From contig NZ_JAGGQL010000005.1 of the NCBI RefSeq assembly GCF_018613315.1, positions 156,286-220,285 on the forward strand: DNA of 64,000 nt. Reading direction: 5' to 3'. Below, piece by piece: positions 5,833-7,167 of this stretch; the first letter of the stretch is position 1, and every line of letters starts with the position of its first letter. The notes beneath the pieces are model-generated. The model was not told where the DNA came from, searched no databases, and saw only the letters and a program-made list of their open reading frames with translations. Source of the DNA: Bacillus sp. ISL-37. Its GTDB lineage: Bacteria > Bacillota > Bacilli > Bacillales > Cytobacillaceae. The position numbers and the translations under genes are program-made.

Positions 5833-7167
5833 CTATAAAAATCTCTTGTCGAGCTCAGACACTAGTCTATTATTTTCTTCAATATCCTGATGAATCCCAT
5901 CTATTTCGGAAGATATATTCAATTCCTGTTGTTTGACTGAACTGATTTTCCGTTGCTGGGTTTCGTGCTGTTCCGTGATCTTTCGCAAACGGTCTGCCAG
6001 GGACATGCTGTCAGCCCTAATGGATAAGATACCAGATGAAACTTTTTCGAGCTCTTTATTTTGAGATTTCACCTTTGCGTCTATCTGCTGCATAAGGTCA
6101 TCAAAGTCAGTGAATGAAGAAAAACTTGAACTGATTTTGTTCTCTATTCCTTCTAATTGTGTCGATATATTTTGAGAAGCTTCTGCAGAGGCAGCCGCCA
6201 GCTTGCCAACTTCTTTTGCCACCACAGAAAATCCTTTACCGTGTTCACCTGCACGTGCCGCTTCTATGGAAGCATTTAAGGCCAGGATTTTCGTTTGTCC
6301 TGAAATCGATGAGATCGTTGAGCTGATGCTGCCAATGGTTTTAGTTAAACTTACAAGTTCCTTTAACAATTCTGATGTTTGATTCATATGCTCGACAGCC
6401 TGCTGATTATCCTTTATGACAGCAACAGAGCCCTCTGCTACTTCTTCAATTGCCCCGCTGTACGTGCTAATCTTTGATTCCATTTGTTCAAATACGGTAA
6501 AAAATTGGGATAGTGCTTCTTTATTTTCAGTGAGCTCGTTTTCCAATCCATTAATAGAAACTAGATTACGATTCACACTTTGTTTAATCGTCTGGGTGGA
6601 TAAAACAATATCATTGAAGGTTTCTTTCATTGCACCAACGAATACGCCTGCCTGTCCTTGGTCATCTGCTACTTCTCCATCAGGACCTGGCTGATGGATT
6701 TCCTGGAGGATATTAAAAATTTCATCCAACGCTGGACGATCAAATTGCGAATCCCCGATATAGCTGTAGCGAATCACGTGGTTTCCATCCAAGACATAGG
6801 TGCTAGGTATGGCAATCCGGAAACTGTCCCATTTTACAGGTACAAAAACCTCATATTGTTTAATCACTGTTCTCTTTTCATCAGACAGGATCGGAATCTT
6901 GATGCCTTCTGAATCAACGTAAGCCTGAATCCCCTTAATATTCTGTCCTGCAATTCCCAGGACTTGTATTCCCTTTTCTTTTAAAAGATCATATTGTTCA
7001 TTCAGCTGGACCAGCTGAGTCCGGCAGTTTGGTCACCAAGTGCCTCTTAAGAAAACAATAATAACAGGCTGACCTGCGAAGTCTGATAAGCTGTATTTTG
7101 TATTATTCGTTCCGGGCAAAGCAAAATCTGGTGCTTGCTTGCCTACGTTTAAACCTCTATTAGCCAA
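5833..7167 (-). CDS. Putative selenoprotein: peroxiredoxin-like domain fused to a chemoreceptor signalling domain
   Basis: One frame runs from TTG at 7167 (AGGAG 8 nt upstream) to 5833, 444 residues, broken only by an in-frame TGA at 7033-7035. Residues 1 to about 155 form an AhpC/TSA-type redoxin: VGKQAPDFALPG, VIIVFLRGTW-(TGA)-PNCRTQL, IPILSD and IAIPSTYVLDG. In relatives the TGA position is the first Cys of CPxC, so the codon stands where U45-x-x-C48 is expected. The rest is a soluble methyl-accepting-chemotaxis signalling coiled coil with the conserved tip QTKILALNASIEAARAGEHG at about 291-310. No membrane segment is present, so it would be a cytoplasmic redox chemoreceptor. A stem-loop follows the TGA (separate entry). 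Alternative reading: a nonsense mutation, leaving a shorter protein from the GTG at 6867 that would lack the redox site. Confidence 0.7.
7002..7018 (-). promoter_or_regulatory. Candidate bacterial SECIS stem-loop
   Basis: On the minus strand, nt 15-31 after the TGA form TCAGCT-GGTCC-AGCTGA: a 6-bp stem with a five-base loop containing GGU. Bacterial SECIS elements lie within the coding region just downstream of UGA and carry a G/GU-rich apical loop bound by SelB; the placement resembles that of E. coli fdhF. The stem is short and unusually symmetrical, so folding and SelB binding need checking. Confidence 0.5.

What the first reader, a model, noticed from the sequence alone, without database searches (positions are those of the whole stretch)
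5833..7167. Putative selenocysteine peroxiredoxin fused to a cytoplasmic chemoreceptor
A single reading frame of 444 codons is broken by exactly one stop, TGA at 7033-7035, and that TGA stands where peroxiredoxin-like relatives have the first Cys of CPxC: RGTW-(TGA)-PNCRTQL, giving UxxC. Sequence on both sides is intact redoxin (APDFALPG before; IPSTYVLDG after), there is a proper ribosome site and TTG start, and a stem-loop with a GGU loop lies just after the TGA. The C-terminal two thirds is a methyl-accepting signalling coiled coil with a well-conserved tip and no membrane segment. This would be a soluble peroxide or redox-sensing chemoreceptor using selenocysteine. Whether this fusion has been described I cannot tell.
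Basis: partly seen in the sequence, partly recalled or inferred. Interest (0 to 1): 0.95.

Follow-up and report, generated by a model that had tools for sequence, protein, structure and literature searches.

The report
Selenocysteine-based soluble chemotaxis receptor
A Bacillus relative and its kin carry one gene that joins a redox domain with an in-frame UGA, predicted to be read as selenocysteine, to the signalling half of a soluble chemotaxis receptor, so the cell would likely steer by its internal redox state and would need selenium to make the receptor at all.

Summary
Confirmed and strengthened. The frame 7167-5833 (-) has one internal stop, TGA at codon 45, and is preserved on both sides. 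The same single TGA is in 11 of 11 matching genomes of the genus (21 searched) and in three further genera; six database fusion proteins and one genome copy have Cys there. The genome holds selA, selB, selD (with its own UGA) and tRNA-Sec. A hairpin after the TGA is predicted in 13 of 13 distinct TGA forms, that hairpin in 0 of 6 Cys forms, and it lies in the stretch with the highest synonymous conservation examined. Corrections: the N-terminal domain is the known 'Prx-like' UxxC type, not a true peroxiredoxin, so thiol-disulfide (selenenylsulfide) chemistry is likelier than peroxidase chemistry; and U45 and C48 are the only Cys/Sec positions in 444, so a built-in thiol/selenol switch must be that pair. 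New: a flagellar sigma-D-type promoter precedes the gene, its -10 kept in 9 of 9 fusions of the genus. The papers searched showed no selenocysteine chemoreceptor. Sec insertion, CheA coupling and the signal sensed are untested.

The parts
5833..7167 (-). Full gene, 444 codons plus stop: UxxC redox domain + MCP signalling domain
7033..7035 (-). In-frame TGA, codon 45, predicted selenocysteine of U45-P-N-C48
   Evidence: TGA in 13 distinct loci; Cys in 6 of 6 Cys-form loci compared
7002..7018 (-). Predicted SECIS hairpin, positions 18-34 counting the U of UGA as 1
6691..7164 (-). AhpC/TSA-superfamily, thioredoxin-type sensor domain (about residues 2-159)
5836..6660 (-). MCP signalling coiled-coil hairpin (predicted helices 170-305 and 311-443, tip about 306-310)
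7174..7182 (-). Shine-Dalgarno-like AGAGGAGAG before the TTG start
   Evidence: read from the sequence
7205..7230 (-). Sigma-D-type promoter-like TAAA-N14-GCCGATAA, 37 nt before the start codon
5793..5827 (-). Intrinsic-terminator-like hairpin after the gene, between it and the convergent STAS gene
   Evidence: consensus match only
4938..5792 (+). Convergent STAS-domain neighbour (RsbR-like by recall), conserved beside the gene in the genus loci compared; not obviously part of the system
7244..10426 (-). Upstream SNF2-type helicase, neighbour in the genus loci compared and not in the other five

Best explanation
The gene encodes a soluble chemotaxis receptor whose N-terminal thioredoxin-like domain carries a predicted selenocysteine, and it likely reports cytoplasmic redox state to the chemotaxis kinase. 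Shown by sequence: one conserved UGA at the first position of a UxxC active site, Cys relatives, Sec machinery in the genome, a hairpin after the UGA shared by the UGA forms, an MCP signalling domain with no membrane segment, and a flagellar-type promoter sequence. Inferred: UGA is decoded as Sec by SelB and the hairpin; oxidants, disulfides or the thioredoxin/bacillithiol pool convert U45/C48 between selenol-thiol and selenenylsulfide; the change at the active site passes to the coiled coil through the linker at about 158-170 and alters CheA activity. As U45 and C48 are the only Cys/Sec positions in the chain, a built-in thiol/selenol switch can lie only there. With no selenium, translation would stop at codon 44 and no receptor would be made, so the sensor would also be selenium-gated.
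For: TGA as the sole internal stop in 11 of 11 matching genomes of the genus (21 searched), and in G052, G258 and G576 of other genera. Cys at the site in six full-length fusion proteins and in G517. tRNA-Sec 67.1 bits with anticodon tca, selB 357.7 bits, selA 563.1 bits, selD 395.4 bits with its own UGA, each over its curated cut-off. Hairpin in 13 of 13 Sec forms, that hairpin in 0 of 6 Cys forms, with one double change G-C to C-G in L047. Synonymous identity up to 0.87 in 9-codon windows just after the TGA against 0.55 overall; the eight highest windows all start at codons +3 to +11. The other TGA redoxin L018 has a near-identical hairpin at the same distance. Sigma-D-type -10 in 9 of 9 fusions of the genus and in G258; the exact consensus also lies before FlgM, CheV and another MCP in this genome. 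Only two Cys/Sec positions in 444 residues.
Against: No direct evidence of Sec insertion, CheA/CheW binding or chemotaxis. No strict methylation motif was found. Sec/selA co-occurrence is weak evidence: all 21 genomes of the genus have selA though only 11 have the gene, 3 of 3 TGA-form genomes outside have it, but so do 23 of 42 other genomes and one Cys-form genome, G517. selA is split in G020 and has stops in the 66%-complete G010. Hairpin folding z-scores are weak, -1.4 to 0, and overlap those of the Cys forms, -1.2 to 0.7; five of its seven pairs never vary, and two of the six slid versions (-1, -2) score higher on covariation, 0.086 and 0.081 against 0.037. L018 shares the peptide QLVEL, so its like hairpin could be partly protein-driven. 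The -35 TAAA is exact in only 3 of the 9 genus fusions, and L043, L045, L046 and L047 have no such site within 500 bp. The whole-genome count of the promoter pattern is only 16 against 9 for the reversed control. The full-length model has pTM 0.37, so domain geometry is unknown.
Confidence: 0.72

Rival explanations
1. The receptor is a peroxide sensor working as a peroxiredoxin: Sec reduces peroxide to selenenic acid, resolved by C48.
For: Overall fold is closest to peroxiredoxins (Bcp4 TM 0.87/0.91, AhpE 0.84/0.90). Selenols react readily with peroxide (general knowledge).
Against: U45 falls in the column of the Thr/Ser of TxxC, and C48 in the column of the peroxidatic Cys; P121, the cis-Pro position, is present, and the 7 Prx-type rows lack it. 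The Sargasso Sea paper separates this UXXC 'Prx-like' type from TXXU Sec-peroxiredoxin (PMC1088965, passage).
Confidence: 0.2
2. The domain is an enzyme docked on chemoreceptor arrays rather than a sensor (MCP half as a localisation tail).
For: Stand-alone versions of the domain exist (L042, L050-L052), so it can act alone.
Against: Nine of nine fusions in the genus keep the MCP tip sequence and its columns are mostly invariant or nearly so across fusions; the fused genes of the genus have a flagellar-type -10 and the stand-alone L042 at the same locus does not. These fit a sensor but do not exclude docking.
Confidence: 0.06
3. TGA ends translation; a separate MCP fragment starts downstream (as databases annotate it), with the first 44 codons a leader.
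For: Database entries begin downstream of the TGA: seen in sequence for P0008, P0009, P0012, P0015, P0021 and P0023; P0020 has the 344-residue length of the fragment.
Against: Protein-level conservation across the TGA, Cys in relatives, hairpin and Sec machinery. A ribosome site for the fragment was not examined.
Confidence: 0.03
4. Pseudogene or sequencing error at TGC/TGT.
For: A single stop is what one error would give.
Against: Same TGA in 13 distinct loci, fusions down to 41% protein identity (L047), with no other internal stop.
Confidence: 0.01

Closest known systems
Prx-like thiol:disulfide oxidoreductase selenoprotein family (PF00578, UxxC/UxxU)
   Same: AhpC/TSA fold, UxxC active site; listed in PMC13188914 Table 1 (part 1 of 3 of section 7 read) and described in PMC1088965 (passages)
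   Different: Here it is the N-terminal half of a signalling protein; 'chemota' and 'methyl-accepting' have 0 occurrences in either main text
Soluble methyl-accepting chemotaxis proteins
   Same: PF00015 signalling domain, predicted coiled-coil hairpin, no membrane segment
   Different: Sensor is a redoxin domain with predicted Sec; such a sensor was not seen in the paper searches made
TlpD/CZB chemoreceptors (Helicobacter TlpD, McpA)
   Same: Receptors reporting oxidants or redox potential; TlpD is cytosolic (PMC6715182 abstract; PMC13370339 passages)
   Different: They use a zinc-bound Cys in a 3His/1Cys site; here the predicted switch is U45/C48 in a thioredoxin-type site
ResA-type thiol-disulfide oxidoreductases
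   Same: Best sequence match in the PDB (58.8 bits), CxxC aligned with U45/C48
   Different: ResA is exported, has a cis-Pro outside the aligned stretch and no signalling domain (all three recalled)

Membership tests
Selenoprotein | In-frame UGA aligned with Cys of homologues | tested here: met
Selenoprotein | Sec machinery (selA, selB, selD, tRNA-Sec) in the genome | tested here: met
   all over cut-off (of 14 control genomes 5, 2, 1 and 2 are over it for tRNA-Sec, selB, selA and selD)
Selenoprotein | Bacterial SECIS: hairpin just after UGA, G in small apical loop | tested here: met
   G25 of the loop invariant in 13 of 13; folding energy alone not significant; no calibrated bacterial SECIS model was used
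Selenoprotein | Selenium in the protein | not testable with these tools
   needs 75Se or MS
Prx-like UxxC oxidoreductase | PF00578 with UxxC (thioredoxin-like) in place of TxxU | tested here: met
   definition from PMC1088965 passage
Peroxiredoxin (true) | TxxC/TxxU (or SxxC) active site without the Pro of column 121 | tested here: not met
   U45 in the T column, C48 in the peroxidatic column, P121 present
Methyl-accepting chemotaxis protein | PF00015 signalling domain with conserved hairpin tip | tested here: met
Methyl-accepting chemotaxis protein | Methylation sites | tested here: inconclusive
   no strict match, one loose match at 224 (motif recalled)
Methyl-accepting chemotaxis protein | Binding and control of CheA/CheW | not testable with these tools
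   needs biochemistry
CZB (TlpD-type) redox chemoreceptor | CZB domain with 3His/1Cys zinc site | tested here: not met
   no such Pfam match at E <= 0.001; the only Cys besides U45 is C48

The most novel reading that the evidence does not exclude
A genetically encoded selenium-gated sense: a chemotaxis receptor that uses selenocysteine as its redox switch, made only when selenium is available, so cells gain or lose a taxis response with their selenium supply. It would be the first signal receptor, rather than enzyme, built on selenocysteine in bacterial chemotaxis.
Probability: 0.55. Interest if true: 0.9.

Novelty: new variant of a known kind. Interest (0 to 1): 0.8.

Why it matters
The 2026 inventory of prokaryotic selenoproteins expects most uncharacterised families to serve redox functions (PMC13188914, section 7 part 1) and its main text has no occurrence of 'chemota', 'chemorecept' or 'methyl-accepting'. 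A receptor with U45/C48 as its only possible thiol/selenol switch would link selenium supply to behaviour and gives a minimal system (one UxxC pair, one coiled coil) to test how such a switch drives a chemoreceptor. Some genes of this kind are in databases as truncated MCPs that start after the TGA (six seen in sequence; P0020), so the family is partly hidden by annotation.

Tried and rejected
Peroxiredoxin label: rejected after aligning stand-alone relatives. Co-occurrence of the TGA form with selA: tested, but weak because selA is common in the order. Operon partner: none seen; neighbours are shared only among the genus loci compared and differ in G052, G258, G576, G500 and G517. MCP remnant behind the stand-alone domains L041/L028 and L058 (the L042 gene): nothing significant. 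Rfam scan of the window at gathering cut-offs: 0 matches. Tree of Sec and Cys fusions: two label changes needed, one not excluded, long branches, so the direction of Sec/Cys exchange is left open (the P rows were read from alignment files and held gap characters when passed in). In the order and class searches at most 4 candidates per genome were scored, so weaker copies may be missed; the order search around G576 held only 14 genomes, 2 with a match. TGA forms sit truncated in the protein database, so protein searches undercount them.

Literature: ten searches. Searches returned no paper. The other seven (33, 37, 38, 67, 69, 70, 77) list 20 of 29, 20 of 23, 20 of 29, 9 of 9, 4 of 4, 1 of 1 and 15 of 33 papers; no title or opening of an abstract shown there names a Sec chemoreceptor or a redoxin-MCP fusion. 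Only openly licensed PMC texts are searchable.

Full report
Observation. On the minus strand, 7167-5833 is a frame of 444 codons with a TTG start, a Shine-Dalgarno-like AGAGGAGAG and a single internal stop, TGA at 7033-7035. Base-shuffled frames hold 29.7 stops on average, never under 12 in 2000. Pfam finds AhpC-TSA at 8-134 and MCPsignal at 254-400. The mechanical ORF list gives only the 344-residue piece from 6867, and database entry P0020 (344 aa, 'methyl-accepting chemotaxis protein', Bacillus sp. ISL-55) has that length.

The TGA looks like a coding site. In the genus, 11 of 21 genomes have a match at E <= 1e-60 and all 11 have exactly one TGA and no other stop inside the match; nine are full fusions, two (G010, G012) match only the redox domain. 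Named relatives are Mesobacillus selenatarsenatis SF-1 and Bacillus sp. ISL-55, both with TGA at codon 45. In the order, 8 of 397 genomes match at E <= 1e-55, six of this genus and two of others (G052, G258), all with one TGA. In the class, 8 of 398 match the Brevibacillus fusion P0004: two of this genus, G576 as a TGA fusion, G500 and G517 as Cys fusions, and G476, G510 and G714 as Cys stand-alone domains. Six full-length Cys fusions, P0002-P0007, are among the 34 reported hits of the protein search (named sources Fictibacillus, Brevibacillus, Paenibacillus; P0002 has no name); P0005 and the G500 copy look identical by eye.

Sec machinery. tRNA-Sec on the same contig (67.1 bits, gathering score 47; anticodon tca), selB (357.7 bits, cut-off 242.25), selA (563.1, cut-off 267.9) and selD (395.4, cut-off 125) are all present; selD has its own UGA at STKAG-U-GCK and lies beside selA. 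Of the 14 control genomes 5, 2, 1 and 2 exceed the cut-offs for tRNA-Sec, selB, selA and selD. selA is in 21 of 21 genomes of the genus, including the 10 without the gene; in 3 of 3 outside genomes with TGA forms, 1 of 5 with Cys forms, and 23 of the 42 others examined. Co-occurrence fits but proves little.

SECIS. A hairpin CAGCU-loop-AGCUG begins 18 nt after the first base of UGA. It is predicted in 13 of 13 distinct Sec forms (L040 dropped, its protein and this stretch being the same as in L039) and in 0 of 6 Cys forms (L045, L046, L050-L052, L029); some Cys forms fold into other, unrelated hairpins, and the folding z-scores (Sec -1.4 to 0, Cys -1.2 to 0.7) do not separate the two sets. In the pair count 94.5% of cells pair against 4-40% for slid versions; five pairs never vary, one has a double change (G-C to C-G in L047); 15 to 71 of 500 shuffles reach the observed measures, and two slid versions score higher on covariation, so this is support and not proof. 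Synonymous codon identity is 0.55 over codons -38 to +111 and 0.87 in the best 9-codon window; the eight highest windows all start at +3 to +11; the five Cys forms counted (L029 left out) have their highest windows elsewhere. The sequences are related, eight of the 13 being genus fusions. Another TGA redoxin of this genome, L018, has nearly the same hairpin at the same distance, though it shares the peptide QLVEL there.

What the sensor domain is. In 61 relatives of the stand-alone copy L042, the U45 column is Cys in 47, gap in 6 (entries that start after the site), Trp in 1, and Thr or Ser in 7; those 7 are ordinary TxxC/SxxC peroxiredoxins whose Cys stands in the C48 column and which lack the Pro of column 121; the other 54 have it. 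So this is a thioredoxin-type UxxC site with a cis-Pro position (cis-Pro by recall of the fold) on a Prx-like fold. The domain model has pLDDT 88.7 and is closest to Bcp4, with AhpE also near, by fold, and to ResA by sequence. The Sargasso Sea paper describes just this Prx-like UXXC type, set apart from TXXU peroxiredoxin (PMC1088965, passages), and the 2026 review lists it (PMC13188914, part 1 of 3 of section 7).

What the rest is. Residues 170-305 and 311-443 are predicted as two long helices with a tip at about 306-310. The tip QTKILALNASIEAARAGEHGKGF is identical in the nine genus fusions and its columns are mostly invariant or nearly so across all fusions aligned. No membrane segment is seen. 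U45 and C48 are the only Cys/Sec positions of the protein.

Regulation. TAAA-N14-GCCGATAA, the Bacillus sigma-D consensus (recalled), lies 37 nt before the start; one exact match in the window against 0.10 expected. The -10 GCCGATAA/T is intact in 9 of 9 fusions of the genus (the -35 TAAA exact in 3 of the 9, TTAA or a near match in the rest), in L041 and, in a different setting, in L044. It is absent from the stand-alone L042 and from L043 and L045-L047 within 500 bp, and from L050-L052 within 170 bp. Shuffled upstream sequence reaches the window's score (11 of 12) in 4 of 1000, and a score of 10 in 63. In the whole genome the exact pattern occurs 16 times against 9 for the reversed control, a mild excess; three of the 16 lie just before FlgM, CheV and another MCP, which suggests that the consensus is in use here.

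Mechanism. Most likely the UxxC pair cycles between selenol-thiol and selenenylsulfide with the cytoplasmic redox pool or incoming oxidants, and the coiled coil passes this to CheA. The identity as a Sec-form redoxin-MCP fusion rests on sequence evidence; Sec insertion, signal and output are inferred. Selenium lack would end translation at codon 44.

Known or new. The redox domain is a known selenoprotein type and soluble chemoreceptors are known, including redox-responsive CZB receptors (TlpD: PMC6715182, abstract and outline; McpA: PMC13370339, passages). The combination, and selenocysteine in a chemoreceptor, did not show in ten paper searches (listings partly capped) nor by term in the main texts of five selenoprotein papers (PMC13188914, PMC12013277, PMC9312934, PMC1794560, PMC1088965; term look-ups; supplements not seen).

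Noticed in passing
L018 1995-2546 (-): Second predicted selenoprotein of this genome: AhpC/TSA domain with GVG-U-DFC after a lipoprotein-like signal (by eye), and a near-identical hairpin after its TGA.
   Followed up: partly
L019 2106-2663 (+): Third predicted selenoprotein: AhpC-TSA/AhpC-TSA_2 domain with RHLG-U-PVC; its TGA is followed by a different hairpin.
   Followed up: partly
L077 about 1360-2463 (-): selD itself has an in-frame TGA (STKAG-U-GCK) and lies beside selA.
   Followed up: partly
L058 about 5786-6262 (same gene as in L042): G012 has the redox domain alone, with TGA, at the orthologous locus, without the MCP half and without the sigma-D-type site.
   Followed up: partly
L029 6001-6419: Virgibacillus oceani holds a decayed Cys copy (CPIY, further stops).
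   Followed up: no
protein P0053: A stand-alone relative with Trp at the U45 column, possibly a UGA translated as Trp by its source.
   Followed up: no
G020:C1:1845480-1846866: selA is split into two overlapping matches in a genome that carries the TGA fusion gene.
   Followed up: no
L041 / L028: The UBA9944 copy keeps the sigma-D-type -10 and the TGA but ends after 176 codons with no recognisable MCP half; the genome is 66% complete.
   Followed up: partly
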